From assembly GCA_004298155.1 (NCBI GenBank), contig SCRD01000012.1:496001-560000 (forward strand): DNA of 64,000 bases, read 5' to 3'. Each line of letters opens with the position of its first letter. Position 1 is the first letter of the stretch. Under the pieces are notes generated by a model. That model worked only from the letters and a program-made list of their open reading frames with translations, searched no databases and was not told the origin of the DNA. Source of the stretch: Acidobacteriota bacterium (lineage in GTDB: Bacteria > Acidobacteriota > Terriglobia > UBA7540). The position numbers were made by a program, and so were the translations under genes. Shown here piece by piece: positions 38,098 to 56,076 of this stretch.

Positions 38098-38353
38098 AGA
38101 AATCGGTCTGCATGAGATGATTTTGCAGTGCCGGGCTCCGATTCGGCATCTTCGCCATGTTGTTCCACAACCATATCGGGCTGGAGTCGACGCTACAAGG
38201 ACACAGGGCGCAACCCGGTGTGTCACGGTCGACTCGTCCCGCCAAGGCGGGATCACGGCCCTGACGCCCGTGGCACAAACCCCTGCGCTGGCAAGCACGC
38301 GCGTTATATAATCTCTCCCTTGCAGGCCAACCTACGTCATGATTGGGAGTCAG

Positions 38354-41300
38354 ATGAACCAGGCTTACAAAAAAGTCCTATTCATTTCAGGCACGCTCGC
38401 TGCTGCTGCGCTCCTTCCCTTCCTCGTGGCCGGACGACAGTCGGCGGCCCAGCAGGGCAAAAGCCCCAGAGCGGTACAGGCCACTGCGCCGGATTCGGCA
38501 ACAATCCAGACCTGGCGCAACGTGGGCAAGGCGTACTATGAGCAAGGCAAGTACCCACAGGCGGCGGACGAATTCCAGAAGGTCGTCAAGTCGGGCCACG
38601 CCGTCGCCACAGATTATCTTGACCTGGGCCTTGCCTACACGCAGGCAAACGACCTCAACCGGGCGCTTGCCGCGCTCACCACTGCCAGGCAGATGGCGCC
38701 GAACCTGACAGCCGTTGATTACAACCTGGGGATCCTTTACAAGCGGGAACTCCACTACGGGCCCGCCGAAGAAGCGTTCAAGAAAGTCATCGCCGCCGAT
38801 CCTGAGGACCCGGCCTCGTGGTTCAATCTGGGCACCGTCTACTTTGCTGAACGCAAGCTCGATCCGGCGCTCGAAGCCCATGAGCGGGTAAACAAGATGG
38901 GCTTTGCGCGCGGGCAAAACTTTTACGTCGCTTCCCTGTTCCGCGCTTTCACCATTCTGGTCCGAATGGACCGCCGGCCGGAAGCGCAGAAGGTACTGAA
39001 GCTCCACCAGGAGTACAGCGACAAGGTCCCCGGCATCTCGCTCCAGAGTCCCGCGCTGGAAAAAGGCAAGTACGGAGCAATTCTGGTCCCGGCAGCGCCG
39101 CCAGTAACTGTGGCAGGCCGCGCCGCCACGCGACCCGTCAGTTTCCACGAGATCACTTCGGAACTGGGAATCTCCCTGCGCGGCGGAGGGCAAGCCGGGA
39201 GCGGAGACTCAGCCGAAATCAAGGCGGCGGATTACTCGCCGGATTTTGCACAAGCAAAGCTCCTGCCGCTGTTCGGTCCCTCGATCGCCATCGGCGACTA
39301 TAACGGCGACTCACATCCCGACCTCTACATTGTGAATCCTGGCGGGAAAAATCAGCTTTTCCATAACAGCGGCGCGGGAACTTTCCAGGACGTTACTGCG
39401 AAGGCTGGAGTCGAAGGGCCGAGGCATTCCATTTCCGCCACTTTTGCGGATTATGACAACAGCGGAAACCTGAGCCTTTTCGTGGCCGGCCTCGGCGGCG
39501 TTCACCTCTACAAAAACAACGGCAACGGCACCTTCACGGATGTTACGGAGAAGGCTGGAATCAAGCCCCAGCCTGGCGAAGTGGACACACGCGCGCTTTT
39601 GTTTGACGCTGATAGCGACGGCCTGCTGGACCTTGTTGTCACTTCCTACACCAATTTGAATCAGCCGCCGCATGGGTCGAGTTTCCGTTTTCCCGACAGT
39701 TTCTCACCCGCCGCCATCCACTTTTATCGAAACAACGGCAATGGCACCTTCACCGACATAACACAGGCGGCGGGCCTGGGCAGCGTCCGCGGCCGCTTCC
39801 GCAGTGCGCTGTTTGCCGGCTTCACCGGCAGCACCTATCCGGACCTTGTCTTCTTCCGCGATGACGGTCCGCCTGTTTTCTTCAAGAACCTCGGAGGCGA
39901 CAGGTTTCGAGACCGCTCTCGCGAGGCAGGCGCAGCCTTCAGCAAGGCCACCGCTCTTGGCGGTGCTGTGGCTGATTTTGACCACGATGGCAGGTTCGAT
40001 CTTGCGCTTTGGACCACCAGCGGCTACGAAGTGCTGAAGAACGACGGCGACGCCAAGTTCACGCCGTTTCCGAATCTCCCTGCCGTCAAGCCGCCTGCTC
40101 CACTGCTGGCTTTTCGGGGACTCGCCGCCGACATCATTGGCAACAGCTATGAAGATCTGCTGGTGGCCGATTCTGCCGGGAAGCTGCACCTGCTGGCCAA
40201 CCGGCTGGGACGCTTCCACGAAGAAGCCATTCATCTGCCGGTAAGCCCCTCGGTGAAACTCGCCACGCTGGACGCCGCCTGGATCGGCAAACCCGGGGCC
40301 CTTGATTTGATCGGCGCCACCCGCAACGGAAAGCTCGCGGCCTGGGCCAAAGCCGGACCGCCCGAACATTGGCTCGAAATCAGCATGGATGGTTCAAAGA
40401 GCAACAAGCAGGGCGTGGGATCAGAAATCGAGCTGAAGCAGGGGAATTTTTATGACAAGGTCCTGATCAGCAACGGCCCGGCCTATGTCTACACCGGCAA
40501 CCTGTCAAAACTGGATGTGGTGCGCGCCACGTGGCCGACGCAGATTATCCAAAACAACCTTGCCGTCGCCACCGATACGGCAATCCGCTTCCGCGAGTCG
40601 GAGCGCCTGGCGAGTTCCTGCCCCATGCTTTACGCGTGGAACGGCAAGCGGTTCGTCTTTGTTACGGACATCCTGGGCGTGGGCCCGCTGGGCGAGCTGG
40701 CCGCGGACGGCACGCTGATCAAGCCCTATTCGCGCGAATTCGTCCGGCTGCCCGGCACGTTGCGCCCCGTGCCAGACGGGGCCGGGCAGCGCCAGCGCGG
40801 CGGGAACTATGAGTTCCAGATGACCGATGAGCTGCGGGAGGTTGATTACTTCGACCGGCTGCGCCTGCTGGCCGTTGACCACCCCGCCGGCGAAAAGATT
40901 TATGCGAATGAAATCTATTCTTCAACGCCATCTGAGCCCAGCCTTTACGCGGTCCCGAACGAGCAGTTGCCGGTGTCGGCGGTGGATGACCTCGGCAACA
41001 ACGTTCTGCCGCTGATCAGCAAAGAGGACCATCAATATCCTCACAGCTTCCAGCGACTGCGCATTCCGGGCATGGCCAAAATGCACTCGCTGACGCTCGA
41101 CCTCGGCAAACTGCCTCAAGCCGGGCGCGTCTCGTTGTGGCTGACGGGATGGGTGTTCTGGACCGACTCGAACGGATCAAGAGCGCTGATGCACGACCCC
41201 GGCACGCCCATGATTTCGCCCTACGTGCAGGTGCGGAACCAGCAGGGGAAATGGGTCACTGTTATATCCGATATGGGCCTGCCCAGCGGCACTAACCGCA

Positions 41301-41920
41301 CCATGCGCGTTGACCTGACAGGCAAATTCCTCTCTCAGGACCATCATGTCCGCGTCGTCACCAACCTTTGCGTCTACTGGGACCGCATCTTCTTCACCAG
41401 CAACGACCGGATTGTGCAACCTGACCGCGAGGCATCACCCGAGTATGCCGATCTCCATTATCGCGGTTTTTCCACGCCAGCCACTGATCCCGACCACATC
41501 CGCCCGGACCATTATGAATACGCCTCATTGATGAACCGGGCGCCCTGGAACCCCATGCGCGGCGTCTACACGCGCTACGGCAACGTCGGAAAACTCTTGA
41601 GCCAGGCCGACAATCAGATGGTCGTGATGTCTACCGGAGATGAGATGACGGTGCGCTTCAGCGCAGCAAATTTCCCGCCGCTGCGGAGGGGCTGGGTGCG
41701 GTCATTCTTCCTGGACGCCACCGGCTACGCAAAAGACGGCGAACCGAACACGGCCTACTCAGCCACCGTGGCTCCGCTTCCCTTCCATACGATGGCGAAT
41801 TATCCACCGGGACCTGAGGACCGCGCGCCCGACAGCGCAGCCTATCGCGAATATATCAGGACGTACGAGACGCGGCCATCGTATCAGTTGATACCATCGC
41901 TGGCCCCGCCGGCGGATTAG
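38354..41920 (+). CDS. Large exported TPR, FG-GAP/VCBS and ASPIC/UnbV protein
   Basis: The protein is 1,189 residues from the ATG at 38354 (another in-frame ATG is five codons upstream). A signal or TM segment (about 8-27) is followed by TPRs (about 53-190). An FG-GAP/VCBS propeller (about 300-640) carries calcium-type DYNGDSHPDLYIVN, DADSDGLLDLVV and DFDHDGRFDLAL loops and repeated NNGNGTFTD motifs. An ASPIC/UnbV (CRTAC) segment (about 670-740, GVGSEIELKQGNFYDKV) comes next. The last ~440 residues begin SCPMLYAWNGKRFVFVTDIL and match no domain I can name. Such proteins are frequent in Acidobacteriota and are thought to act at the cell surface. Confidence 0.88.
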   Translation: MNQAYKKVLFISGTLAAAALLPFLVAGRQSAAQQGKSPRAVQATAPDSATIQTWRNVGKAYYEQGKYPQAADEFQKVVKSGHAVATDYLDLGLAYTQANDLNRALAALTTARQMAPNLTAVDYNLGILYKRELHYGPAEEAFKKVIAADPEDPASWFNLGTVYFAERKLDPALEAHERVNKMGFARGQNFYVASLFRAFTILVRMDRRPEAQKVLKLHQEYSDKVPGISLQSPALEKGKYGAILVPAAPPVTVAGRAATRPVSFHEITSELGISLRGGGQAGSGDSAEIKAADYSPDFAQAKLLPLFGPSIAIGDYNGDSHPDLYIVNPGGKNQLFHNSGAGTFQDVTAKAGVEGPRHSISATFADYDNSGNLSLFVAGLGGVHLYKNNGNGTFTDVTEKAGIKPQPGEVDTRALLFDADSDGLLDLVVTSYTNLNQPPHGSSFRFPDSFSPAAIHFYRNNGNGTFTDITQAAGLGSVRGRFRSALFAGFTGSTYPDLVFFRDDGPPVFFKNLGGDRFRDRSREAGAAFSKATALGGAVADFDHDGRFDLALWTTSGYEVLKNDGDAKFTPFPNLPAVKPPAPLLAFRGLAADIIGNSYEDLLVADSAGKLHLLANRLGRFHEEAIHLPVSPSVKLATLDAAWIGKPGALDLIGATRNGKLAAWAKAGPPEHWLEISMDGSKSNKQGVGSEIELKQGNFYDKVLISNGPAYVYTGNLSKLDVVRATWPTQIIQNNLAVATDTAIRFRESERLASSCPMLYAWNGKRFVFVTDILGVGPLGELAADGTLIKPYSREFVRLPGTLRPVPDGAGQRQRGGNYEFQMTDELREVDYFDRLRLLAVDHPAGEKIYANEIYSSTPSEPSLYAVPNEQLPVSAVDDLGNNVLPLISKEDHQYPHSFQRLRIPGMAKMHSLTLDLGKLPQAGRVSLWLTGWVFWTDSNGSRALMHDPGTPMISPYVQVRNQQGKWVTVISDMGLPSGTNRTMRVDLTGKFLSQDHHVRVVTNLCVYWDRIFFTSNDRIVQPDREASPEYADLHYRGFSTPATDPDHIRPDHYEYASLMNRAPWNPMRGVYTRYGNVGKLLSQADNQMVVMSTGDEMTVRFSAANFPPLRRGWVRSFFLDATGYAKDGEPNTAYSATVAPLPFHTMANYPPGPEDRAPDSAAYREYIRTYETRPSYQLIPSLAPPAD

Positions 41921-42479: not shown

Positions 42480-43421
42480 TCATCCGATCTCGCCCGCGGC
42501 AATGCTCCGGCCACGTGCTCCATCCACGCCCTGCGCGGGCTGGCGAAGCCTTCTGCCCACTGGCGCGGACATGGCCGCAACCCCGCTGCGCAGTCTCGCC
42601 AGGGCGCCTGAGTGCAGTTGCGAAACCCGCGATTCGTCGATGCCAAGTCTGGAGCCAATCTGCTTCATGGTCAGCCCGTCCTGGTAGTAAAAGGCAATAA
42701 TGGAGCGGTCGCGTTCGGTCAGGCACCTTAGAGCGCCTGAAAGCAGGTCTCTCTGTTCGCGACGGTAGCACAGTTGATAGGGGTTGCCATCAGAGGAATC
42801 CGGCAGGTCCTCTTCACTCACTCGCTTGCTGGTACCCGGCAAAAAACGGGTGCCTGTCCCTTCAAAACCAAGCGGCTGCAATTCGGCGGCCCGTTCATGC
42901 CATCGCGCAAGGCCCATTCCCATCGCACGGGCCATCTCCGCGTCTTCCGGCGGGCGGCCCAGATTGCGTTCAAGGGCCTCACAGGTGGATTCAACTTTCT
43001 TGACCCTCCTCCGCATATCACGCGAAGCATAGTCCTGCTTCCGCAGTGAATCGAGGATGGCGCCGCGAATACGGTAGCGAGCGTAACTCTCGATCGTTAC
43101 CCCTTTGGCCGGGTCAAATTTTCTGACGGCGTCAATCAGGCCCACTGTCCCGTCACTCACCAGGTCGTCGAGTTCCACATGGGCGGGGAGTCGCCCGCGC
43201 ATTTGAAGAGCAACCCGCTTAACCAGCGGGATCAGCTTTACGACCAGGCTGTTCGAACCATCCCAATCGTGGGATGGTCCGCGACTCGGCGCCGGGTGCG
43301 GACTACTGGTAGTACAAACCTGGCTGCTGCGGCAATTTCCACGAGCGCGACGCCTTCCACACCCGTACTTATCGTCGTGATGATGACCATGACTTGAGGA
43401 AACACCAAATTGAATCGCCAC
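42480..43421 (-). CDS. FliA/WhiG-type alternative sigma factor
   Basis: The protein is 313 residues from a GTG at 43421, with GGGGG upstream. The first 55 residues (His/Arg/Cys/Ser-rich) are not part of the fold, and a later start is possible. Region 2 is clear: LVVKLIPLVKRVALQM, then ELDDLVSDGTVGLIDAVRKF and SYARYRIRGAILDSLRKQDY. Region 3 (about 125-185) and region 4 (RDRSIIAFYYQDGLTMKQIG, then SRLGIDESRVSQLHSGALAR) follow. This is the sigma-28 arrangement without region 1. No flagellar, chemotaxis or anti-sigma gene is near, so motility control is only one option. Confidence 0.85.
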   Translation of the reverse strand: MAIQFGVSSSHGHHHDDKYGCGRRRARGNCRSSQVCTTSSPHPAPSRGPSHDWDGSNSLVVKLIPLVKRVALQMRGRLPAHVELDDLVSDGTVGLIDAVRKFDPAKGVTIESYARYRIRGAILDSLRKQDYASRDMRRRVKKVESTCEALERNLGRPPEDAEMARAMGMGLARWHERAAELQPLGFEGTGTRFLPGTSKRVSEEDLPDSSDGNPYQLCYRREQRDLLSGALRCLTERDRSIIAFYYQDGLTMKQIGSRLGIDESRVSQLHSGALARLRSGVAAMSAPVGRRLRQPAQGVDGARGRSIAAGEIG

Positions 43422-44495: not shown

Positions 44496-45146
44496 ATGTC
44501 CCAAATCTTTCATCGCAGCATGAACGCCATCGCCAAGGCGAGCATTTATGGCATCGTTCTTGTCGTTGCATTGATCGGCTACGTGAGTTGGCAGGTAAAC
44601 CAGTCGGCCTACTATACTTATATTAAACGTCCGCTTCCGCAGCCGGTTCCATTCAGCCACGAACACCACACGGCACAACTCGGCATTGACTGCCGTTACT
44701 GCCACACTTCGGTTGAGAACTCGTTTTATGCGGGCGTTCCTCCCACGCACATCTGCATGTCGTGCCACTCGCAGCTATGGACGAACGCCGACATGCTGGA
44801 GCCAGTGCGGGCCAGCTACCGTACCAACGAGTCGATCCAGTGGAACAAGGTCAATGCCCTGCCCGACTTTGTCTATTTCAACCACAGCATTCATATCAGC
44901 AAAGGAATTGGTTGCACGACGTGTCACGGGCAGCTTGGCAAGATGCCGATCACATGGCGGGAAAACACCCTCTACATGAGGTGGTGCATTAACTGCCATA
45001 AGTATCCGGAACGTTATGTCAGGCCAAAGAAAGATGTGTTCGATCCCATTTATACTCCGCCTTCGAACCAGATTGCCATGGGCAAAAAGCTGGTGAAGGA
45101 GTACGAGATAAGGAGTCTTACCAGTTGCGAGACGTGTCATCGATAA
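44496..45146 (+). CDS. actA: Alternative Complex III pentaheme cytochrome c subunit ActA
   Basis: The 216-residue protein has an N-terminal membrane anchor (about 12-34) and five CxxCH heme sites: C66-H70, C87-H91, C140-H144, C164-H168 and C211-H215. ACIII ActA has this size and heme count. It accepts electrons from the Fe-S subunit and passes them toward the oxidase on the periplasmic side. It is the first gene of the respiratory operon; actB begins 22 bases later. Confidence 0.93.
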   Translation: MSQIFHRSMNAIAKASIYGIVLVVALIGYVSWQVNQSAYYTYIKRPLPQPVPFSHEHHTAQLGIDCRYCHTSVENSFYAGVPPTHICMSCHSQLWTNADMLEPVRASYRTNESIQWNKVNALPDFVYFNHSIHISKGIGCTTCHGQLGKMPITWRENTLYMRWCINCHKYPERYVRPKKDVFDPIYTPPSNQIAMGKKLVKEYEIRSLTSCETCHR

Positions 45147-45168: not shown

Positions 45169-48100
45169 ATGAAGGACAACAATTTCATCGACCTAGCCAC
45201 GGTCCGGGCAGGCCATGAAAACGGCGGCAAAAAACAGTTCTGGAGAAGCCTGGAACAACTGGCTGGCGCAGAAGATTTTCAGGAACTTGCGCAACGGGAG
45301 TTCCCCAAGAACCCTCCCGTCAAACAAGCGGAATCCGGAGTGAGCCGTCGAAACATGCTGAAATTGATGGCCGCTTCCGCCGGGCTGGCGGGATTGACCG
45401 CTTGCACGAAGCTACCCATCGAACACATTGCGCCTTACGTCCGGCCTTCGGAAGAGTTTGTTCCCGGCCACCCCTTGTTTTATGCCACTTCGATGCCCCG
45501 CCCTGAAGGGGGCGCGATCGGACTCCTTGTCAGGAGCAACATGGGCCGCCCGACCAAGGCGGAAGGCAATCCCGACCACCCTGCCAGCCTTGGCAGCACG
45601 GACATCTTTGGCCAGGCATCCGTACTCGATTTATGGGACCCTGATCGCGTCCAGACCGTATTGCACGAAGGCGCCATCACCAATTACAGCGAGTTCCTGG
45701 ATTTGCTGGGCCAGTTGCGCGGTTCGTACCTGACTCAGAAGGGCGCAGGATTCCGGGTCTTGACTGAGACCATTACGTCACCCACGCTGGGGAGCCAGCT
45801 CAAGTCGCTGCTGGCGCAATTCCCCGAGGCGAAGTGGCACCAGTACACCCCGGTCAACCGCCATGCGGAACGGGAAGGCATACGGGCGGTTTACGGCGAA
45901 GCGCTCAGCGTCTATTACAAGTTTGACCAGGCTGACGTGGTCGTATCGCTGGATTCTGACTTCCTGTGTTCCGGTCGAGGCGGAGTACGCTACAGTCGTG
46001 ATTTCGCTGACAAGCGGCGGATTCGAGACGCGCACAGCTCGATGAATCGCCTGTACGTGGTTGAATCCATGGCAACGATCACGGGCGCTACGGCCGATCA
46101 CCGGCTCCCGCTGAAGCCCAGCCAGATCGAGGCTTTTGCAACCGCGCTGGCGGCGGCAGTGGGTGTGAAAGGGATTGACGCTGGCGCACAGGCCCCGGCC
46201 GGGGTTCCGGCTGCATGGTTGTCTGGCGTTGCACACGACCTCCAGCAGCATCGCGGCGCCGGCATTGTTCTGGCCGGTGAGCAGCAACCGCCCGCCGTCC
46301 ACGCCCTGGCGCATGCCATCAATGCAGCGCTCGGCAATACCGGTAAAACCGTCATCTGCACTGCTCCGATTGAAATCCAGCCCGTCAACGAGATGGATTC
46401 CATCAAAGAACTTGTGGATGACATGAACGGCAGCAAGGTCGACACCCTTTTGATCATCGGCGGCAACCCGATATACAACGCTCCGGCCGATCTGGCTTTT
46501 GAAAAGGCGCTCGACCTCGTCAAACTGCGGCTTCGTCTTGGTATCTACAACGACGAGACCTCCTACCGCTGCCACTGGGTTGTTCCACAGGTCCATTTCC
46601 TGGAAGCCTGGAGCGACGAACGCGCTTATGACGGCACGGCTTGCGTCGTTCAGCCGCTGATCGCGCCGCTCTACGGAAATCGCTCTGCCCATGAGGTCCT
46701 GGGGGCGCTTCTTGGAGACCCTGGCCGCACTCCGCACGAGTGGGTGCGCGGTTATTGGTCAGACCAGAAACTTGCCACACCCACCGAGTATGAAACTTTC
46801 TGGGAGACCGCCCTCGAGAAAGGCGTTATACCGGGAACCGCCTTCCCGGCTAAAACCGTGACTCTCAAACCCGGCTTCGCCGCCGCTCTGGGTAAACACT
46901 CAAATGGTGGGAGCGCAAGCGCCGGTCCAATGGAGATTGCCTTCCGCCCGGACCCGACTGTCTGGGATGGCAGCTTTACCAACAATTCCTGGCTGCAGGA
47001 ACTCCCGAAACCGCTGACGACCATGACCTGGGATAACGCGGCGTACATCAGCCTGGCCGCCGCCGAGCAGCTCGGCGTCACAAATGGTGATGTGGTGGAG
47101 ATCGCCTACGATGGGCGCAAGCTCCGGCTCCCGGTCTGGATCCTTCCCGGGCATGCTGACGGCTGCCTGACCGTCACTTTTGGATACGGCCGGGCACGCG
47201 CGGGACGGGTTGGCAACGGAACAGGTTTTAATGCCTACTCCATCTGGACATCCGACAAGCCTGGCTTCGGTCCGATTTCCACGCCCAGAAAAACCGGAGA
47301 TCGCTACCATCTTGTGACCATGCAAAGGCACAACATCATTGGGGAAGGAGGCCACAAGCAAGAAGAGGAGAGCGTGGCCGCTTTTCGCCGGGACCTGGTG
47401 CGTGTCGCAAACCTTGACGAGTTTCGTTCCAATCCGGATTTCGCGGCTGACCCGCCGGAAGAAACGGTCCAGGCCCCCAACCTTTATCCCCGCTATGACT
47501 ACAGCACGGGATACCAGTGGGCCATGGCTATTGACTTGAACAGTTGCGTGGGCTGCAATGCCTGCGTGGTGGCCTGCTACGCCGAGAACAATATTGCCGT
47601 CGTGGGCAAGGAGCAGGTTGACCACGGGCGCATCATGCAATGGGTCCGCGTGGATACCTACTGGCGCGGCAGCCTGGAAAACCCCGAAGCCTATCACGTC
47701 GTAATGCCCTGCATGCACTGTGAAAACGCGCCCTGCGAATATGTATGCCCGGTGGGCGCGACCGTGCACAGCCCCGAAGGGCTCAACCTGATGGTTTACA
47801 ACCGCTGCGTCGGAACGCGGTATTGCTCCAATAACTGCCCCTACAAAGTGAGAAGGTTCAATTTCTTTCTATTTTCCGACTGGCAAACGCCCAGCCTTTA
47901 CGGCGTGCGGAACCCGGACGTTACAGTCCGCAGTCGCGGCGTGATGGAGAAATGCACGTACTGTGTGCAGCGCATCAAGGAAGCCGAAATCAGGACTCAG
48001 GAAGAAAATCGCACCATTCAGGATGGCGAGGTGGTCACCGCCTGCCAGCAGGCTTGCCCCACGCAGGCCATTGTATTTGGAAATATTAACGATCCCAAGA

Positions 48101-48222
48101 GCAAGATTTCAAACCATAAGGCTCAATCGAGGAACTACGTCTTGTTAGCCGAACTGAATATTCGTCCACGAACGTCGTACTTAGCGCGGCTGCGAAATCC
48201 GAATCCGGAGATCAAGGAGTAA
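45169..48222 (+). CDS. actB: Alternative Complex III molybdopterin-like/Fe-S subunit ActB
   Basis: The 1,017-residue fusion has a twin-arginine motif at residues 60-61 ([14 protein letters not shown]) ahead of a lipobox-like LTAC. An inactive molybdopterin-oxidoreductase-like body follows (about 90-740). The C-terminal part is a ferredoxin-like module with cysteine clusters beginning at C793 ([11 protein letters not shown]), C848 ([14 protein letters not shown]), C880 ([12 protein letters not shown]), C929 (CTYC) and C959 (CQQACP). Those ligands suit four clusters. In known ACIII the MopB part binds no cofactor. It carries electrons from the membrane quinol sites to ActA and ActE. Confidence 0.93.
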
Positions 48223-48226
48223 GGGG

Positions 48227-49615
48227 ATGGCTGGAATAGAACCCGATAATGTGGGTACCCTGGTTTCCCCGGGAAGCGATGTCCTTGGCCCCGGCCATTC
48301 TTACGGGTCGGTAACCGACAAGATCAGCGCGATCGTCCTCACCCGAGGGACCGGCAATAAGTATAAGGTTGGATTCGGGGTCGCCGTGTTGCTCTTCATT
48401 GGGCTTAACATGGGCATCACGGTCCTGATGGCGTATGGCGTCGGGGTATGGGGCATTAATATTCCGGTAGGCTGGGGCTATGCCATCACCAATTTTGTCT
48501 GGTGGATCGGAATCGGCCACGCCGGGACACTGATCTCGGCCTTCCTTTTGTTGATGCGGCAGAAGTGGCGCACATCGATCAACCGGTTCGCGGAGGCCAT
48601 GACGCTTTTCGCAGTGGCTTGCGCGGGCATGTTCCCCCTGCTGCACATGGGTCGGCCTTGGCTCTTCTACTGGCTGCTTCCCTACCCTGACACAATGGGC
48701 GTGTGGCCGCAGTTTCGCAGCCCTCTGGTATGGGACGTTTTCGCGGTCTCGACTTACGCGACTGTTTCATTGCTGTTCTGGTACGTTGGCCTGATCCCAG
48801 ACCTTGCAACTCTTCGCGACCGTGCTACAAAAAAGTTCAAGCAGGTCATTTACGGAGTTTTCGCGCTCGGATGGAGAGGCTCGGCGCGGCATTGGAAGAA
48901 CTATGAAATGGCCGGATTGCTGCTCGCGGGACTGGCAACACCACTGGTTGTCTCCGTCCACACGGTGGTCAGCTTCGACTTCACCATTGCGGTCCTTCCA
49001 GGCTGGCACAGCACGATCTTCCCGCCCTATTTCGTTGCGGGCGCCATCTATTCCGGCTTTGCGATGGTGATTGCGCTGGCCGTGCCCCTGCGGAAGTACT
49101 ACGGGCTCGAAGATTTCCTCACCATCCGCCACCTGGACAATATGGGCAAGATCATGCTGGCCACGGGCCTGATCGTCGCTTACAGCTACGTCATGGAAAC
49201 CTTCATGGCGTTTTACAGCGGCAACAAGTTTGACATTTACATGATCATGAACAGGATGACAGGGCCATACGCGGTTATTTACTGGGTGCTGATCGCAGTA
49301 AACCTGGTCATTCCCCAATTGCTGTGGTCAGCGCGAATCCGGCGCAACCCCCTGTATCTTTTCCTGATGTCCTTCTCCGTCCAGACCGGCATGTGGCTGG
49401 AACGCTACATGATTATCGTTACCAGCCTCCATCGCGATTTTGTTCCCTCTTCGTGGGGAATGTTCGCTCCTACACGCTGGGACTGGATCGTCTTCCTTGG
49501 CACCATCGGCTTTTTCTTTACTCTCTTCTACCTGTTTATCCGCTTCCTGCCCATGATCTCGATCTTCGAGATGCGGGACCTGGTCCACAAGACCGCAGAG
49601 GAGGCCAGACCTTAA
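48227..49615 (+). CDS. actC: Alternative Complex III NrfD-like membrane subunit ActC
   Basis: The 462-residue polytopic protein has about ten TM helices of the NrfD/PsrC type. Conserved features include VWWIGIGHAGTLISAFLLL and LLHMGRPWLFYWLLPYP. ActC is a likely menaquinol-oxidising subunit. It starts 4 bases after actB and is directly followed by actD. It is related in fold to ActF, also in this operon. Confidence 0.93.
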   Translation: MAGIEPDNVGTLVSPGSDVLGPGHSYGSVTDKISAIVLTRGTGNKYKVGFGVAVLLFIGLNMGITVLMAYGVGVWGINIPVGWGYAITNFVWWIGIGHAGTLISAFLLLMRQKWRTSINRFAEAMTLFAVACAGMFPLLHMGRPWLFYWLLPYPDTMGVWPQFRSPLVWDVFAVSTYATVSLLFWYVGLIPDLATLRDRATKKFKQVIYGVFALGWRGSARHWKNYEMAGLLLAGLATPLVVSVHTVVSFDFTIAVLPGWHSTIFPPYFVAGAIYSGFAMVIALAVPLRKYYGLEDFLTIRHLDNMGKIMLATGLIVAYSYVMETFMAFYSGNKFDIYMIMNRMTGPYAVIYWVLIAVNLVIPQLLWSARIRRNPLYLFLMSFSVQTGMWLERYMIIVTSLHRDFVPSSWGMFAPTRWDWIVFLGTIGFFFTLFYLFIRFLPMISIFEMRDLVHKTAEEARP

Positions 49616-50155
49616 ATGAGAAGCATGAATTCGTTTTACGGACTGATGGCCGAGTTTATTTCGGCGGAAGAACTTCTCGAAGCAAGCCAGCGCGCCAGCG
49701 AAGCCGGTTACCGGAAGATGGACGCGTATTCGCCTTTTCCCATCGAGGGGCTTTCTGAAGCCGTAGGGTTTTATAAGTCCAAGCTCCCGCTCCTCGTCTT
49801 CTGCGGAGGCTTATTTGGCTGTTGCGGCGGCTTCTTCCTCCAGTGGTGGCCGAACGTCATTGGGTACCCGCAGAATATCGGCGGCAAACCTTGGGACAGC
49901 TGGCCTGCCTTTATTCCGATTACATTCGAACTGACAATTCTGTGCGCCGCATTGTCGGCCACGTTCGGCATGATTGCGCTCAACCGGCTGCCATCTCCTT
50001 ATCACCCTGCGTTCAACGTTGAGCGATTTGCGCTGGCGAGCAAGGACCGTTTCTTCCTGATGATCGAGGCGGAAGACCCCATGTTTGACCTGGAGCGGAC
50101 TCGGCAATTTCTGAATGAACTCAATCCTCGCGAGGTATCTGAAGTTGAAAGCTAA
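49616..50155 (+). CDS. actD: Alternative Complex III subunit ActD
   Basis: The 179-residue DUF3341 protein has a soluble N-terminal part (FYGLMAEFISAEELLEASQR, then MDAYSPFPIEGL) and two TM segments (about 60-80 and 100-122). Length and pattern fit ActD. It starts immediately after the actC stop. It scaffolds ActC, ActF and the heme subunits in known structures. Confidence 0.9.
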   Translation: MRSMNSFYGLMAEFISAEELLEASQRASEAGYRKMDAYSPFPIEGLSEAVGFYKSKLPLLVFCGGLFGCCGGFFLQWWPNVIGYPQNIGGKPWDSWPAFIPITFELTILCAALSATFGMIALNRLPSPYHPAFNVERFALASKDRFFLMIEAEDPMFDLERTRQFLNELNPREVSEVES

Positions 50156-50810
50156 CAGGGGCCAGAGACAACACGTAACGACGGCAGCCTCATCCGTCTC
50201 TTTCCCAGGGTCATTTATCACTCAGACGCGTACCGGAACGGCCCTGCGATGGGCGGCCATCGCGATGGTCGGGGTCCTGATGGCGGGTTGTCGGCTCGAT
50301 ATGCACGTCGAGCCGAAATATAAAGGTCTTGAGCCAAGCAGCTTCTTCAACGACGGGCGCTCAGAGCGGCCGGTTGTTCCCGGGACAGTTGCCAGAGGAG
50401 AGCTAAGGACCGACGAACTGTACTACACCGGCAAGATCAACGGCCAGATCGCTAACCTCTTCCCATTTGCGATCACAAAAGAAGATCTCGACCGCGGCCA
50501 GGAACGGTTCAACGTTTACTGCGCCCCTTGCCACGACTATACGGGAAGCGGCAACGGAATGATCGTACAAAGAGGATTTCCGGCGCCGCCTTCCTACCAC
50601 ATCGACCGCCTGATGAAGGCGCCGGTTGGCCATTTCTTTGACGTTATGACCAATGGCTATGGGACCATGTACAGCTACGCGGGCCGCGTCTCTCCCAGAG
50701 ACCGCTGGTGCATTGCGGCTTATATCCGCGCTTTGCAGTTGAGCCAGAATGCTCCCACAAGCGATGTTCCGCCAAACGAACTTACGAAACTTGAAGGATC
50801 GGCACAATGA
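50115..50810 (+). CDS. actE: Alternative Complex III monoheme cytochrome c subunit ActE
   Basis: The 231-residue frame starts at an ATG inside actD (41-base overlap). A later non-ATG start closer to the signal peptide is possible, because the first 40 residues are polar and unlike a signal sequence. A lipoprotein signal (AIAMVGVLMAGC) leads to an acylated Cys. The heme motif CAPCH is in RFNVYCAPCHDYTGSGNG, with a distal Met candidate in GTMYSYAGR. It overlaps actF by four bases. Confidence 0.9.
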   Translation: MNSILARYLKLKANRGQRQHVTTAASSVSFPGSFITQTRTGTALRWAAIAMVGVLMAGCRLDMHVEPKYKGLEPSSFFNDGRSERPVVPGTVARGELRTDELYYTGKINGQIANLFPFAITKEDLDRGQERFNVYCAPCHDYTGSGNGMIVQRGFPAPPSYHIDRLMKAPVGHFFDVMTNGYGTMYSYAGRVSPRDRWCIAAYIRALQLSQNAPTSDVPPNELTKLEGSAQ

Positions 50811-51958
50811 ACGAAGATACCCTGAAGCCCGGACTCGATCGTGCCCAACGCTGGTTTTTGATGGTCGGCGTGGTCGCCCTGGCAGCATGCGCCTACGGGG
50901 CCTATTCCAACTGGACAGGGTTCCTCAGGGCATACCTCGTCGCATACATGCTCTGGTTTCTAATCGGGATTGGATGCCTCGCCATACTCATGTTGCACCA
51001 CATGGTGGGCGGCAAGTGGGGATACGTGATCCGGCGCACACTCGAGGCCGGCACCCGAACCATCCCGCTGCTGGCGCTGTTCTTCATCCCTCTGGCCATT
51101 GGACACTCAGACCAGCAGTTGTATCCCGCGGTGAGTGGCACTTCGTTCAAGGCACTATATCTGAGCCCGTCTTTTTATTTCGCCCGTGTCATTATTTATT
51201 TCGCCGCATTCCTGTTCTTCGCGTATTCCCTGAACAAGGTGTCGTCGCTGCAGGACCAGGGAACAGCGCATGGGTTACTAAAGAGGTTCAGCAACCTTAG
51301 CGCCCCCGGGCTGTTGATCTATTGCGCGGCCATCAGCTGGGCCTCCTTCGATTGGGTCATGGCGCTGGAACCAAACTTTTTTTCAACCATCTTTGGCATG
51401 ATCTTTATCATAATGTCGGCCCTGGCGGCAATGTCGTTCACGATTATCGTTTCCATGATTCTGTCGAAACACAAGCCGTTGTTAGGAGTCATTACTTCGT
51501 ACAACTTCAACGACCTGGGCAATATCCTGCTGACGTTTGTGATGCTTTGGGCTTACTTGTCTTTCTCCCAGTTTCTGATTATCTGGGCCGGCAACATGCA
51601 GGATGAGAATTTCTGGTATGCGGTCCGAGGGACCGGCGGCTGGAGATGGGTGGCGCTGTTCATCATTCTTTTCCACTTTGCCGTGCCCTTCATCCTTCTA
51701 TTGAACCGGCCGGTAAAAAGGCACATGAAGGCCCTCGCATTTGTAGGCGGCAGCCTGGTTGTGATGACCTGGATTGACCTCTACTGGTTCATCATGCCCG
51801 CCTTCTATCCGCTGGGGCCGCATATCGATTGGATAGACATTGTTGCTCCTTTCGCGGTTGGCGGGTTGTGGCTGGCGTTCTTTGTCCGCCAGCTCAAGGC
51901 CAAACCCCGCCTGCCTTTGCACGATCCAAGGTTCGAGGGAGTCGTTCAGCATGGATGA
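50807..51958 (+). CDS. actF: Alternative Complex III second NrfD-like membrane subunit ActF
   Basis: The 383-residue polytopic protein has about ten TM helices, a paralogue of ActC in fold, with MLHHMVGGKWGYVIRR, then ISWASFDWVMALEP. The ATG overlaps the actE stop. ActF completes the six-gene act set found in Rhodothermus-like ACIII. Together with ActC it forms the membrane core. The gene overlaps the next small gene by eight bases. Confidence 0.92.
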   Translation: MNEDTLKPGLDRAQRWFLMVGVVALAACAYGAYSNWTGFLRAYLVAYMLWFLIGIGCLAILMLHHMVGGKWGYVIRRTLEAGTRTIPLLALFFIPLAIGHSDQQLYPAVSGTSFKALYLSPSFYFARVIIYFAAFLFFAYSLNKVSSLQDQGTAHGLLKRFSNLSAPGLLIYCAAISWASFDWVMALEPNFFSTIFGMIFIIMSALAAMSFTIIVSMILSKHKPLLGVITSYNFNDLGNILLTFVMLWAYLSFSQFLIIWAGNMQDENFWYAVRGTGGWRWVALFIILFHFAVPFILLLNRPVKRHMKALAFVGGSLVVMTWIDLYWFIMPAFYPLGPHIDWIDIVAPFAVGGLWLAFFVRQLKAKPRLPLHDPRFEGVVQHG

Positions 51959-52418
51959 GAATATGCCTCATTCTGGGGACCCGAAGCACCGGCATGAAAC
52001 TCGAGAGGCGGTGCCTCGATATATCCTGTTCTTTGCCGCGGGTCTTGGCATGGCCGTTGTGGCAGGCTTCCTTGTCAGTTGGGGGACCCTTGCATACTTC
52101 AAGAGCCATCAGAATTACGCTCCCCCAAAGTCGGCTATTTCAGCAGGCCGCGTTCTGCCGCCACCGGGAGTGCCGCAGCTTCAGACGCATCCCGAAGCGG
52201 ACCTGCAGGTATATCTTAAGAAGCAACATGAGATTCTCGACTCATACGGATGGGTGGACCGGAAGAATAATGTGGTTCGACTTCCGATACAGCGCGCAAT
52301 GAATATCCTGCTCCAACAGGGCCTTCCGGTGCGCAACAGCAAGACGCCAAAAGGCGCGGTACAGCCTGGCGAAGTCCAGCAGTACGAGGTCCCGCAGGGC
52401 TATATGCCGCAGAACTAA
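51951..52418 (+). CDS. One-TM protein of the ACIII-oxidase operon, uncharacterised
   Basis: The protein is 155 residues from the ATG at 51951; longer frames upstream lie inside actF. It has a His/Glu-rich head, one TM helix (about 24-48, YILFFAAGLGMAVVAGFLVS) and a periplasmic tail. The tail carries a motif EILDSYGWVDRKNNVVRLPI, then QRAMNILLQQGLPVR. I have a recollection of this tail motif in unnamed proteins beside SCO and cytochrome oxidase genes, but cannot search. Overlap with actF and position before sco suggest a role in coupling or assembling ACIII and the oxidase. Confidence 0.75.
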   Translation: MDENMPHSGDPKHRHETREAVPRYILFFAAGLGMAVVAGFLVSWGTLAYFKSHQNYAPPKSAISAGRVLPPPGVPQLQTHPEADLQVYLKKQHEILDSYGWVDRKNNVVRLPIQRAMNILLQQGLPVRNSKTPKGAVQPGEVQQYEVPQGYMPQN

Positions 52419-52470: not shown

Positions 52471-53448
52471 ATGGCTGTGGAGCATAATCAGGAAAGGTTC
52501 GGCGCCGCAAGGCGCGGTCTGCATGGCAGTTTGCCGATGAAATTGGCATATATTTTTGCATTGTGCATGACCATAACAGTCGTCTACCCGTCCGTTACAA
52601 GAGGACAAATTTCCAAAATCCTTCAAGCCCGTGGGTTTCAGGGGCCTCCGCAAGGGGGAGCTTCCGCCCAGAATTCCAAAGTGGTGCCTCCCCAGCTGAA
52701 AGATGTTGGCATCGACCAGCGGTTGAACAGCCAGGTTCCCCTGGATCTGGTGTTCCACGACGAGACCGGGAAGACGGTCCGGCTGGGCGACTATTTCGGC
52801 AATAAACCTGTCATCGTTTCCCTGATTTATTTCAACTGCCCGCAGCTCTGCCCCATGGTCGAAAACGGGCTTCTGGAGAGTCTCAGGGAGGTCCGGTTTG
52901 ATGTCGGCAATCAGTATAATGTGCTGACGGTCAGCTTTGACCCAAAGGACTCATCCAACCAAGCCTATGCGAAAAGGGCGACTTATCTTTCCATGTATAA
53001 CCGCAAAGGCGCAGCCGCTGGATGGCACTTCCTGACGGGAGACGAACCCTCGATCGCCGCCCTCACCAAAGCGCTGGGGTTCCGCTACAATTACGATCCG
53101 CAAACCCAGCAGTATTCCCATGCCACGGCCATCGTCGTCTTGACGCCTCAGGGCAAAGTTTCGCAGTACTTTTACGGCATTCGTTATCCAGCCGGCGCAG
53201 TCCGCCTGGCCCTGGTGGAGGCATCGCAGGGAAAGATTGGAAATCCCGTCGATGCCGTCCTGCTTTTTTGCAGCCATTACGACGTGAGCACGGGGAAATA
53301 CAGCCTGATCATCTCCCGCGTCCTCTTTATTGCCGGCCTGGCAACCGTAATTATTTTGGGCGTGTTGTTACTGGTCCTGTTTAAAAGCAAGCCCTCCAAA
53401 CAGCACGGGCGGCTCGCCGCGCAGGGGTCTGTTCGGGTCGGGAGGTAG
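52471..53448 (+). CDS. SCO1/SenC-type copper chaperone
   Basis: The 325-residue frame starts at an ATG with AGGG upstream. An alternative ATG 22 codons later gives a clean signal peptide (MKLAYIFALCMTITVV). The thioredoxin-like domain has the copper site CPQLCP (first Cys at residue 123 of the long form), and the distant His is in QQYSHATAIVVL. A C-terminal TM helix (about 285-307) is unusual for SCO but seen in bacterial forms. It would load the Cu-A centre of CoxB, encoded next. Confidence 0.9.
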   Translation: MAVEHNQERFGAARRGLHGSLPMKLAYIFALCMTITVVYPSVTRGQISKILQARGFQGPPQGGASAQNSKVVPPQLKDVGIDQRLNSQVPLDLVFHDETGKTVRLGDYFGNKPVIVSLIYFNCPQLCPMVENGLLESLREVRFDVGNQYNVLTVSFDPKDSSNQAYAKRATYLSMYNRKGAAAGWHFLTGDEPSIAALTKALGFRYNYDPQTQQYSHATAIVVLTPQGKVSQYFYGIRYPAGAVRLALVEASQGKIGNPVDAVLLFCSHYDVSTGKYSLIISRVLFIAGLATVIILGVLLLVLFKSKPSKQHGRLAAQGSVRVGR

Positions 53449-53500: not shown

Positions 53501-54451
53501 ATGCCACAAGCTTTTCCATTATTTCCGCAGCAAGCTTCGACGGTCGCTCCGGCAGTTGACCACCTTTTTTATTTTCTGACGGCGGTGTCCGTTTTCTTCG
53601 GCACGCTCATCTTCCTGCTGATTTTCTACTTTGCAGTCAAATATCGCCGGCGTTCGAAGGATGAGGGGCCGCCGAAAAACCAGGTGGTAAACAATATTCC
53701 GCTCGAGGTCACCTGGACGGTTATTCCAATGATCCTGGTCGCCATCATGTATTTCTGGGGCGCCAAAATTTTTGTCAGCAACGCAACGCCGCCCAAGGAT
53801 GCCATGGAGGTGTTCGTAATCGGAAAACAATGGATGTGGCACATTGAACACACGAATGGGAAACGTGAAATCAATGCGCTGCACATGCCGGTTGGAGTCC
53901 CGGTCAAGCTCACCATGACGTCCCAGGATGTTATTCACGATTTTTCAGTTCCCGCCTTCCGGATGAAGATGGACGTGGTGCCAGATCGCTATACCACTGA
54001 ATGGTTTGAAGCAACCACCCCGGGCAAATACCACCTCTTTTGCGATCAATATTGCGGAATGGGCCATTCTTTAATGGCAGGTTGGGTGTACGTCATGAGC
54101 CAGGAAGATTACCAGAGGTGGCTCAACAGCGGGGTAACGGGCACAACCATGGCAGAAAAGGGTGAAACTCTTTATCATCAGTACGGATGCATCACCTGCC
54201 ATGGCACGGGGAAAGGTCCGGCGTTCGTAGGATTATACGGCAAGCCGGTCAAACTATCAGACGGCCAGACGGTGATAGCCAATGATGCCTATATTCGTCA
54301 GTCGATTCTGGACCCGAGCTCCCAGATTGTTAATGGATACCCGGCGATTATGCCAACATTTAAGGGCCAGGTGACCGAGGAGCAGATCCTGCAAATCACG
54401 GCCTACATCAAATCGCTGGCATCAAAAGAAAGGAATTTGGGGACACCATGA
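53501..54451 (+). CDS. coxB: Cytochrome c oxidase subunit II with fused cytochrome c (caa3-type)
   Basis: The 316-residue protein has two TM helices (about 22-46 and 68-88) and a Cu-A domain with its His in [11 protein letters not shown]. The cluster [13 protein letters not shown] starts at C181 and has all Cys, His and Met ligands. A fused cytochrome c domain has CITCH (C230) and a late Met in AIMPTFKG. This makes it a caa3-type enzyme that can receive electrons directly from ACIII. The last four bases overlap coxA. Confidence 0.95.
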
Positions 54452-56076
54452 GCAGTGCAGAAGTCGCAATCGAGCCCCGCATTCATTACCTGAATGTGGA
54501 CTACAGCATTAAATCGTGGCTGCTTACCACCGACCACAAGAGGATCGCCTGGCTTTACCTGATGTCGATCACGTTCTTCTTTACGATCGGTGGGCTGGCC
54601 GCGACCCTGATGCGGCTGAACTTGCTTGAGCCCCAGGGTCTGCTGGTCGAGCCGGAAACCTACAACAAGCTTTTCAGCATCCACGGGATCATCATGGTCT
54701 TTCTCTTCCTGGTGCCCTCGATCCCTGCCGTGCTGGGCAACTTCCTGCTTCCCATCATGCTCGGCGCCCGCGACGTTGCGTTCCCCCGGTTGAATCTGTT
54801 GAGCTGGTACATCTTCATGACGGGCGGATCGCTTGTCATTTACGCGGTGATTGCCGGCGGGGTTGATACCGGCTGGACCTTTTATACGCCTTTGAGCAGT
54901 CTGTACCTCAACACCCACGTGATGGCAGCAGCAGGCGGCGTCTTTATTGCGGGTTTTTCGTCGATCCTTACCGGCCTGAATTTTGTTGTGACCATTCACA
55001 AGATGCGAGCCCCCGGCCTCACATGGTTCCGTCTGCCGCTCTTTGTCTGGTCCATGTACGCGGCCAGCATCATTTTTATCATCGGAACGCCGGTGATCGC
55101 TATCTCCCTCGCCCTGATCGTTATCGAGCATTTTTTCCACGTCGGGCTTTTTGACCCGGCCCTCGGCGGAGACCCCGTTCTCTTCCAGCACCTTTTCTGG
55201 TTCTATTCCCATCCAGCCGTGTATGTTATGGTTCTGCCGTCAATGGGAGTGATCAGTGAATTGATCACCGCCTTTTCTAAGAAGAAAATTTTCGGATACC
55301 ATTTTGTTGCGTTTTCGAGCATTGCGATTGCCGCCATCGGATTTCTCGTGTGGGGACACCACATGTTCGTGAGCAGCCAGTCAGTCTATGCCGGCCTGGT
55401 TTTCTCTGCCCTCAGCATGGCCGTGGCTATACCATCCGCGATCAAGGTTTTTAACTGGACAGCAACCCTTTATAAAGGGTCTATTTCCTATGAAGCTCCC
55501 ATGCTCTACGCGCTGGGTTTCATCGGACTTTTCACGATCGGTGGGCTGACCGGTCTGTATCTGGCCAGCATTGGAGTGGACCAGCATGTGCACGACACTT
55601 ACTTTGTGATCGCACATTTCCATTACATCATGGTTGGCGGCGCCGTCATGGGCTACCTGGGAGGGATCCACTACTGGTGGCCTAAAATGACCGGGCGCCT
55701 CTATCCGGATGGTTGGGCGAGGGTTTCGGCCATCATTATCTTTATTGGCTTCAACCTCACATTCTTCCCGCAGTTTATCCTGGGTTACCTTGGCATGCCT
55801 CGCCGCTATGCCGTCTACCCGGCTGAGTTCCACACGCTGAATGTCGTGTCGACCGCCGGCGCCTCGATTCTGGGCCTTGGCTATGTTATCCCTCTGATTT
55901 ATCTTGCCTGGTCGGCACGCTACGGCCCCATTGCAGGTCCCAATCCTTGGAAAGCAACCGGCTTGGAATGGACTACCACGTCTCCCCCTCCGACCCACAA
56001 TTTTGAGGAAACGCCTGTCGTTACCGAAGAGCCCTATGGGTATGATCGACTCGCGGAGGAAATACAAGTTGCATAA
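54448..56076 (+). CDS. coxA: Cytochrome c oxidase subunit I, A2-type
   Basis: The 542-residue protein has twelve TM helices and all heme and copper ligands, including [13 protein letters not shown], the GHHMF pair and [14 protein letters not shown]. The key stretch is [10 protein letters not shown] (residues 250-259). Glu of the A1 type (GHPEVY) is replaced by Ala, with Tyr-Ser just before His255, the mark of the A2 family known from Rhodothermus and Thermus caa3 oxidases. His255-Tyr259 would make the cross-linked pair. It overlaps coxB and coxC. Confidence 0.95.

What the first reader, a model, noticed from the sequence alone, without database searches (positions are those of the whole stretch)
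51951..52418. Uncharacterised one-TM protein between actF and sco
It overlaps actF and has a distinct periplasmic motif (YGWVDRKNNVVRLPIQRAM). It is a candidate linker or assembly factor for the ACIII-caa3 unit.
Basis: inference. Interest (0 to 1): 0.55.

Follow-up and report, generated by a model that had tools for sequence, protein, structure and literature searches.

The report
ActG, a respiratory-complex accessory subunit
The unnamed gene is ActG, a small membrane subunit of a bacterial respiratory complex (alternative complex III) that databases still call "hypothetical"; its gene travels with oxidases that carry their own cytochrome c, hinting that it helps dock the two machines together.

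Summary
The ORF is real: 51951-52418, 155 aa, overlapping actF by 8 bases, one predicted transmembrane helix, the motif at residues 99-117. It is not an unknown kind of protein. A profile of its relatives finds the cryo-EM-resolved ActG subunit of Chloroflexus aurantiacus alternative complex III (ACIII) at E = 2e-11, and the order actF-actG and actG-sco-cox matches published actG loci. No Pfam or NCBIfam model covers it.

Where an oxidase gene beside ActG is readable, its CoxII nearly always carries a fused cytochrome c. In Chloroflexota act loci without cox genes nearby ActG is degenerate or absent, and one natural protein fuses ActG to a cytochrome c. This favours a docking role between ACIII and caa3 oxidase.

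Against: the Bacteroidota association is essentially one evolutionary event; one C. aurantiacus ActG belongs to an ACIII operon without oxidase genes; and 20 Acidobacteriota genomes link act genes to a cytochrome-c CoxII without detectable ActG.

Verdict: known subunit, role unproven, interpretation partly supported.

The parts
51951..52418 (+). actG: 155 aa, N-terminal tail with HExRD-like motif (HETREA), TM helix 22-53, Pro-rich linker (PPPGVPQLQ), helix 81-98, motif YGWVDRKNNVVRLPIQRAM, tail
51951..51958 (+). 8-base overlap of actF stop and actG start; translational coupling is inferred
44496..45146 (+). actA, multihaem cytochrome c
   Evidence: cytochrome c7/c3 families
45169..48222 (+). 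actB, Fe-S/molybdoenzyme-like
   Evidence: Fer4 domains only; the molybdoenzyme relation is from family knowledge
48227..49615 (+). actC, NrfD-like membrane subunit
   Evidence: PF03916
49616..50155 (+). actD
   Evidence: PF11821, 6e-66
50115..50810 (+). actE, monohaem cytochrome c (start uncertain)
   Evidence: PF13442
50807..51958 (+). actF membrane subunit
   Evidence: no Pfam hit; named by position and by the conserved order in relatives
52471..53448 (+). sco (start uncertain)
   Evidence: PF02630
53501..54451 (+). coxII with fused cytochrome c domain (caa3 type)
   Evidence: PF00116, PF02790, PF00034 at 218-306
54448..56076 (+). coxI
   Evidence: PF00115
56042..56719 (+). coxIII
   Evidence: PF00510
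56650..57060 (+). coxIV-like (start uncertain)
   Evidence: not scanned against Pfam; conserved position in relatives

Best explanation
The gene is actG (identity about 0.95). It encodes a cofactor-free, single-helix subunit of alternative complex III, most likely with its N terminus in the cytoplasm and its C terminus in the periplasm. Most likely mechanism (role about 0.45, inferred): the C-terminal 'YGWVD...IPI.RAM...GLP' segment binds ACIII near where electrons leave it, while the N-terminal HExxD tail and Pro-rich linker make contacts needed when the acceptor is a caa3 oxidase whose subunit II carries its own cytochrome c. ActG would thus stabilise ACIII and hold ACIII and oxidase in register for electron transfer from ActE/ActA to the CoxII cytochrome c. 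Shown: identity, gene order, association. Inferred: topology, binding sites, docking. The confidence given is for identity and role together.
For: Identity: phmmer hit to 8k9e chain G 'ActG' (E 5.8e-4), profile hits 2.2e-11 and 6.9e-11; published order actF-actG (Caur_0626-0627) and actG-SCO-COX (Caur_2139-2144) (PMC3150298 passages). Locus L164 ActG is 112/112 identical to that PDB chain; the R. marinus-like genome (L180; ActD 216/217 identical to 6f0k_D) has a family member in the same slot. Role: (a) ActF is the next recognised gene upstream in 80 of 80 genome-contig loci kept, of 370 confirmed, and in 11 of 11 plasmid loci opened, of 16. (b) ActG with ACIII: 141 of 797 genomes, 140 with ActD and one with ActF adjacent. 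(c) Oxidase beside ActG is caa3 type: 72 of 72 genome-contig loci with a readable CoxII (of 80), 11 of 11 plasmid loci, 9 of 9 readable near-relative loci, 8 of 9 Chloroflexota (sets partly overlap), 30 of 30 Acidobacteriota tried (of 67). (d) Bacteroidota, loci of 100 of 147 ActD genomes: ActG in 55 of 55 caa3 operons with separate actD/actE, 0 of 37 aa3, 0 of 7 without cox, 0 of 1 caa3 with ActD-E fusion. (e) Chloroflexota: ActG score 0.65-0.96 of reference in 9 cox-linked loci, 0.28-0.46 in 8 without cox nearby and none in L167, while ActA/B/C/D/F, where present in full, stay at 0.73-1.09. N-terminal and linker motifs 9/9 versus 0/8. (f) The Cr-type operon of C. aurantiacus and three relatives carries actB-E-A-G-sco-cox without actC, D, F. 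(g) L062 encodes ActG fused to a CoxII-like cytochrome c.
Against: The Bacteroidota association needs only 2 changes of each trait on an ActC tree, so it is essentially one event. C. aurantiacus Cp-type ActG belongs to an ACIII with no oxidase genes beside it, so ACIII stabilisation alone could explain it. Of 44 Acidobacteriota genomes with ActD but no detected ActG, 20 have a linked CoxII whose match runs through the cytochrome c domain; 19 of these have a long ActD frame, suggesting an ActD-ActE fusion type. L178 pairs ActG with a short CoxII without CXXCH, near a contig end. R. marinus ActG had no cryo-EM density (PMC5928083 passages). AlphaFold confidence outside the helix is low (mean pLDDT 72, pTM 0.35), and structure searches found nothing. 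The operon profiles were built from ActG-bearing, mostly cox-linked loci, which biases scores against unlinked ones; other subunits served as the control. The tail and linker motifs are not universal among caa3-linked members. Of the 8 'unlinked' loci L166 and L168 were read for only 1.4 and 3.4 kb downstream. The genome searches scored only the best first-look candidates (up to 12-25 a genome where many), so remote ActG-like proteins elsewhere could be missed.
Confidence: 0.55

Rival explanations
1. ActG only stabilises ACIII internally and has no contact with the oxidase; its link with caa3 is operon hitchhiking within one lineage of ACIII.
For: Cp-type ActG is a chain of C. aurantiacus structures and its operon has no cox genes beside it; I recall, from no call, that the authors ascribe complex stability to it. 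The caa3 association in Bacteroidota is one event on the tree. Acidobacteriota loci with caa3 but no detected ActG exist.
Against: Degeneration of ActG in cox-unlinked loci while other subunits hold, travel with actA/B/E and cox without actC/D/F, fusion to a cytochrome c.
Confidence: 0.35
2. ActG is an assembly factor for the caa3 oxidase, working with the neighbouring Sco in CuA or cytochrome c maturation.
For: Sco is the next recognised gene in 77 of 80 loci.
Against: The window protein has no cysteine (by reading). ActG persists where no sco was found beside it: M. radiotolerans, L212 and L223. ActG is a chain of solved structures deposited under that name.
Confidence: 0.1
3. The ORF is a chance or unrelated small membrane protein without a link to ActG.
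For: Foldseek finds no match with E under 1; no Pfam/NCBIfam family.
Against: Profile E-values of about 1e-11 to PDB ActG and a conserved slot across phyla.
Confidence: 0.02

Closest known systems
ActG of Chloroflexus aurantiacus photosynthetic (Cp) ACIII, PDB 8k9e/8k9f/8x2j/9ilt chain G
   Same: Gene directly after actF, one hydrophobic helix, C-terminal segment with GKVHIPIDRAMDLIVERGLPVR aligns to window 80-128
   Different: 112 aa; lacks the HExxD tail and PPxPRLQ linker, and two residues of the YGWVD loop; no sco-cox genes in the 7.7 kb read downstream
ActG of the C. aurantiacus respiratory (Cr) operon, L163 (taken to be Caur_2139 from its gene order)
   Same: Keeps HExxD-like tail, PPAPRLE linker and SYGWVN...IPIERAM; followed by sco-cox
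   Different: Operon lacks actC, actD and actF
ActG of Rhodothermus marinus (slot gene in L180; that it is the ActG detected by peptide fingerprinting in PMC5928083 is inferred)
   Same: Slot between actF and sco, caa3 oxidase downstream
   Different: Divergent: profile score 34, matched at the core motif
ACIII-aa3 supercomplex of Flavobacterium johnsoniae
   Same: ACIII working with a haem-copper oxidase
   Different: Described as six subunits ActA-F, without ActG; ActA carries six haems (PMC8552683 passages); fits the aa3/no-ActG pattern

Membership tests
ActG (ACIII accessory subunit) | Gene follows actF in an act cluster | tested here: met
   published order in PMC3150298
ActG (ACIII accessory subunit) | Sequence homology to a structurally resolved ActG | tested here: met
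   (C-terminal segment only)
ActG (ACIII accessory subunit) | One transmembrane helix, no redox cofactor motif | tested here: met
   helix 22-53 predicted; no cysteine, hence no CXXCH
ActG (ACIII accessory subunit) | Same fold as resolved ActG | tested here: inconclusive
ActG (ACIII accessory subunit) | Physically present in purified ACIII of this organism | not testable with these tools
   needs proteomics
Sco-linked copper assembly factor | Cysteine-based copper site | tested here: not met
   no cysteine in the 155 aa (by reading); no Pfam/NCBIfam family
ACIII-caa3 linker (as a function) | Occurs whenever ACIII is paired with caa3 | tested here: not met
   met in 55 of 56 Bacteroidota caa3 loci read, but 20 Acidobacteriota genomes break it as far as the A2 search can see
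ACIII-caa3 linker (as a function) | Contacts both complexes in a structure | not testable with these tools

The most novel reading that the evidence does not exclude
ActG is the acceptor-side adaptor of ACIII: a separable module that adapts ACIII to an oxidase carrying its own cytochrome c. Lineages shuffle the carrier: the cytochrome c sits on CoxII (most), also on ActG itself (L062), or on a TM-cytochrome c protein that occupies ActG's slot and keeps a faint IPVxxA motif in ActD-E-fusion operons; ActG decays when ACIII no longer has an oxidase beside it.
Probability: 0.35. Interest if true: 0.68.

Novelty: new member of a known kind. Interest (0 to 1): 0.45.

Why it matters
ActG is among the least understood named ACIII subunits: reported as not present in all act clusters and without density in the R. 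marinus map (PMC5928083 passages), and in one paper as specific to C. aurantiacus (PMC9316378 passages). The survey shows instead a family across many phyla, found with ACIII. That gives a gene to delete and a motif set (HExxD, PPxPRLQ, YGWVD-IPIxRAM) to mutate to test how ACIII and caa3 recognise each other, an open question for supercomplexes that may bypass soluble carriers. A family model could be built from alignment A2 at once.

Tried and rejected
Family libraries gave nothing (the single weak matches look like chance). Viral contigs gave no relative. Foldseek on the first AlphaFold model found one unrelated chain at E 7.4; the VIA-align second look on the second model aligned no chain. 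The second-copy idea (odd matches) was rejected: of the 12 regions fetched, 10 are ordinary actF-actG-sco loci, one (L119) breaks off inside ActG at a contig edge, and one (L117) is an unrelated cytochrome c. A strict 'ActG if and only if caa3' rule was rejected. The claim that the DE-fusion slot protein is an ActG with an inserted cytochrome c is left open: hhalign score 30.8 against 200 column shuffles (mean 10.7, maximum 25.8, none as high), but only 19 aligned columns and probability 57%. A bug skipped loci L031-L099 (wrong id padding); one search repeats the count with all. In one search L174 is labelled cox-linked through one weak CoxII match (score 24); it is a divergent act locus and is not counted among the nine linked. 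Coexpression, co-evolution of residues and docking were not tried.

Full report
Observation. The ORF 51951-52418 (+) is 155 aa, overlaps actF by 8 bases and contains the motif as described. The surrounding order is actA-B-C-D-E-F, this ORF, sco, coxII (with cytochrome c domain), coxI, coxIII, coxIV. The own genome has one match.

Identity. Pfam and NCBIfam have no model for it, also when 28 sequences of the family are scanned. Against PDB sequences the single protein hits chain G of 8k9e, named ActG, at E = 5.8e-4; a profile of 28 sequences raises this to 2.2e-11 and one of 78 gives 6.9e-11 (three of 80 loci, L053, L062 and L102, were left out of the 78). The aligned part is the C-terminal segment. 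In C. aurantiacus actG follows actF in the Cp operon and precedes SCO and COX in the Cr operon (PMC3150298, passages). The window gene has both neighbours. It is therefore ActG. PMC9316378 (passages) calls ActG specific to C. aurantiacus and absent from R. marinus; PMC5928083 (passages) reports ActG in R. marinus by peptide fingerprinting, with one predicted helix and no density. Here the genome whose ActD is 216/217 identical to 6f0k_D, the R. marinus chain, has a family member in the same slot, so the second account fits; that the fingerprinted protein is this gene is inferred.

Anatomy. AlphaFold2 gives one confident helix (22-53), two short helices (81-98, 113-123) and low confidence elsewhere. 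Invariant in 78 sequences: P75, W101, P112, I113, A116, M117; at 90% or more: M1, E16, D at 19 (E in the window), L77, L96, Y99, G100, G107 (N in the window), G124, P126. The protein has no cysteine.

Distribution. A scan of named genomes found 370 relatives and kept 80, with titles naming Acidobacteria, Verrucomicrobia, Planctomycetota, Chloroflexi, Chlorobi/Ignavibacteria, Caldithrix, Hydrogenedentes, Sumerlaeaceae, Methylomirabilota, Proteobacteria and others. ActF is the next recognised gene upstream in 80 of 80 (in L057 and L074 with gaps of 0.6 and 2 kb); downstream it is Sco in 77, nothing before the contig edge in 2, and in L062 the cytochrome c part of the ActG protein itself. These 80 overlap partly with the near genomes. 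Sixteen plasmid records carry it; the 11 opened are act-actG-cox cassettes, in Azospirillum, Mesorhizobium, Rhizobium, Nitrobacter, Bradyrhizobium, Methylobacterium, Paraburkholderia and planctomycetes; one shows no sco. Five plasmid hits were not opened.

Genome survey. ActD (PF11821) and ActG (A2) were sought in 151 Chloroflexota, 198 Bacteroidota, 149 Acidobacteriota and 299 Pseudomonadota genomes. ActG: 18, 46, 67, 10; ActD: 54, 147, 111, 24. Matched by handle, every ActG genome has ActD except G203, whose 4.3 kb contig shows ActF beside ActG. The centre genome of each set was chosen because it has ActG. ActD without ActG: 37, 101, 44, 14. In Chloroflexota 17 of 18 genomes with a strong ActD (over 190 bits) have ActG and none of 36 with a divergent ActD; of the latter two were opened and show no ActF or ActG (L174, L175). 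ActG counts are lower bounds: 9 further Bacteroidota members appeared only when the slot was read, and only the best first-look candidates were scored in each genome. Published reports of act clusters without actG exist: Melioribacter roseus, where an ActD-ActE fusion is also reported (PMC3534657 passage), and Nitrospirales, without actF and actG (PMC12342949 passage).

Oxidase type. From Bacteroidota, one locus each of 100 of the 147 ActD genomes was read: 46 with ActG and 54 of the 101 without. With iterated profiles (no match outside the slot in three rounds, one marginal in the fourth), ActG occurs in 55 of 55 loci with a CoxII bearing CXXCH and separate actD/actE, 0 of 37 with CoxII lacking CXXCH, 0 of 7 without cox, and not in the one caa3 locus with an ActD-E fusion. 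An ActC tree of 126 rows (quick method; 99 of them Bacteroidota, the rest a hand-picked sample) needs two changes of each trait, so the pattern is in essence one event. In loci chosen for ActG, CoxII has CXXCH in 72 of 72 readable cases of 80 (genome contigs), 11 of 11 plasmids, 9 of 9 readable near relatives and 8 of 9 Chloroflexota; the exception, L178, has a 190 aa CoxII near a contig end. These sets partly overlap. In Acidobacteriota 30 of 30 ActG genomes tried (of 67) have, within about 2.3 kb downstream, a CoxII whose match reaches residue 307 or more of 316. Against the rule, of 44 Acidobacteriota genomes with ActD but no detected ActG, 20 have a linked CoxII match (same contig, within 12 kb) that runs through the cytochrome c, 19 of them with a long ActD frame; 6 have a CuA-only match in a short frame, 3 a CuA-only match in a long frame, and 15 none linked. 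These loci could not be read.

Natural experiments. Four Chloroflexus-like genomes opened (of seven with two ActG matches) carry a Cp-type operon (actA-F with a short ActG, no cox in the stretch read) and a Cr-type operon actB-E-A-G-sco-cox. The Cp copy in one is identical to the PDB chain. Relative to 43 complete reference loci, ActG scores 0.65-0.96 in nine cox-linked Chloroflexota loci and 0.28-0.46 in eight without cox nearby, with none in L167; ActA, B, C, D and F, where present in full, stay at 0.73-1.09 in both kinds (L168 is a fragment; L167 also has a low ActE, 0.34). Downstream of ActG the eight were read for 1.4 kb (L166), 3.4 kb (L168) and 5.7-8.5 kb (the other six). The HExxD-like tail and Pro-rich linker are found in 9 of 9 linked and 0 of 8 unlinked. 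The same regular expressions find them in 75 and 66 of 79 genome contigs rows but only 4 and 6 of 11 plasmid rows and 28 and 3 of 53 Bacteroidota rows, so they are not universal among caa3-linked members, and the window itself has E for D. The references are themselves cox-linked, a bias that the other subunits only partly control.

Fusions. L062 encodes one 300 aa frame with ActG followed by a cytochrome c domain (PF00034, 8e-11) like that of its CoxII. In eight Bacteroidota ActD-E-fusion loci the slot holds a TM-cytochrome c protein with an IPVxxA-like segment after the cytochrome c; seven of the eight have a CoxII without CXXCH and one (L253) has it. The similarity to ActG exceeds 200 column shuffles but covers 19 columns.

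Reading. ActG is an ACIII subunit. The best-supported role is at the acceptor side of ACIII, docking or positioning a caa3 oxidase, with internal stabilisation of ACIII as the main rival. I recall, from no call, that the C. aurantiacus structure paper (Xin et al. 2024; its citation seen, text not held) says ActG contributes to complex stability. In the listings and the passages I opened I saw no statement that ties ActG to caa3-type oxidases in particular; most listed papers were not opened. PMC5928083 treats both in one system, PMC8407424 (passages) describes ACIII-caa3 superoperons in Acidobacteria and does not hold the word actG, and the 'actg' of PMC8788690 is primer sequence.

Noticed in passing
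L062:9965-10864: Natural ActG-cytochrome c fusion in one open frame, with a caa3-type CoxII also encoded downstream.
   Followed up: partly
L228, L240, L249, L251, L253, L261, L268, L274 (slot between actF and sco): ActD-E-fusion act operons carry a TM-cytochrome c protein in ActG's slot with a faint IPVxxA segment, and gene order sco-coxI-III-IV-II.
   Followed up: partly
L123-L133: Whole ACIII-oxidase cassettes on plasmids of rhizobia, Azospirillum, Nitrobacter, Paraburkholderia and planctomycetes, a respiratory module of about 11-12 genes that may move as a block (inferred).
   Followed up: partly
G000:C25:156373-156732: A second, divergent ActD-like match (E 5e-16) in the window's own genome, away from the window.
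   Followed up: no
L074 (7980-10001): About 2 kb lie between actF and actG in this Chloroflexi MAG; content not examined.
   Followed up: no
L068, L071, L073, L093, L095, L097, L110 and the fusion L062: Several ActG tails share a C-terminal SSGRT-like segment of unknown meaning; other clades end differently (by eye).
   Followed up: no
window 38339-41920 and 42480-43421: Upstream of the operon: a 1193 aa TPR/FG-GAP-like protein (+) and a sigma-70-like protein (-); named by eye only.
   Followed up: no
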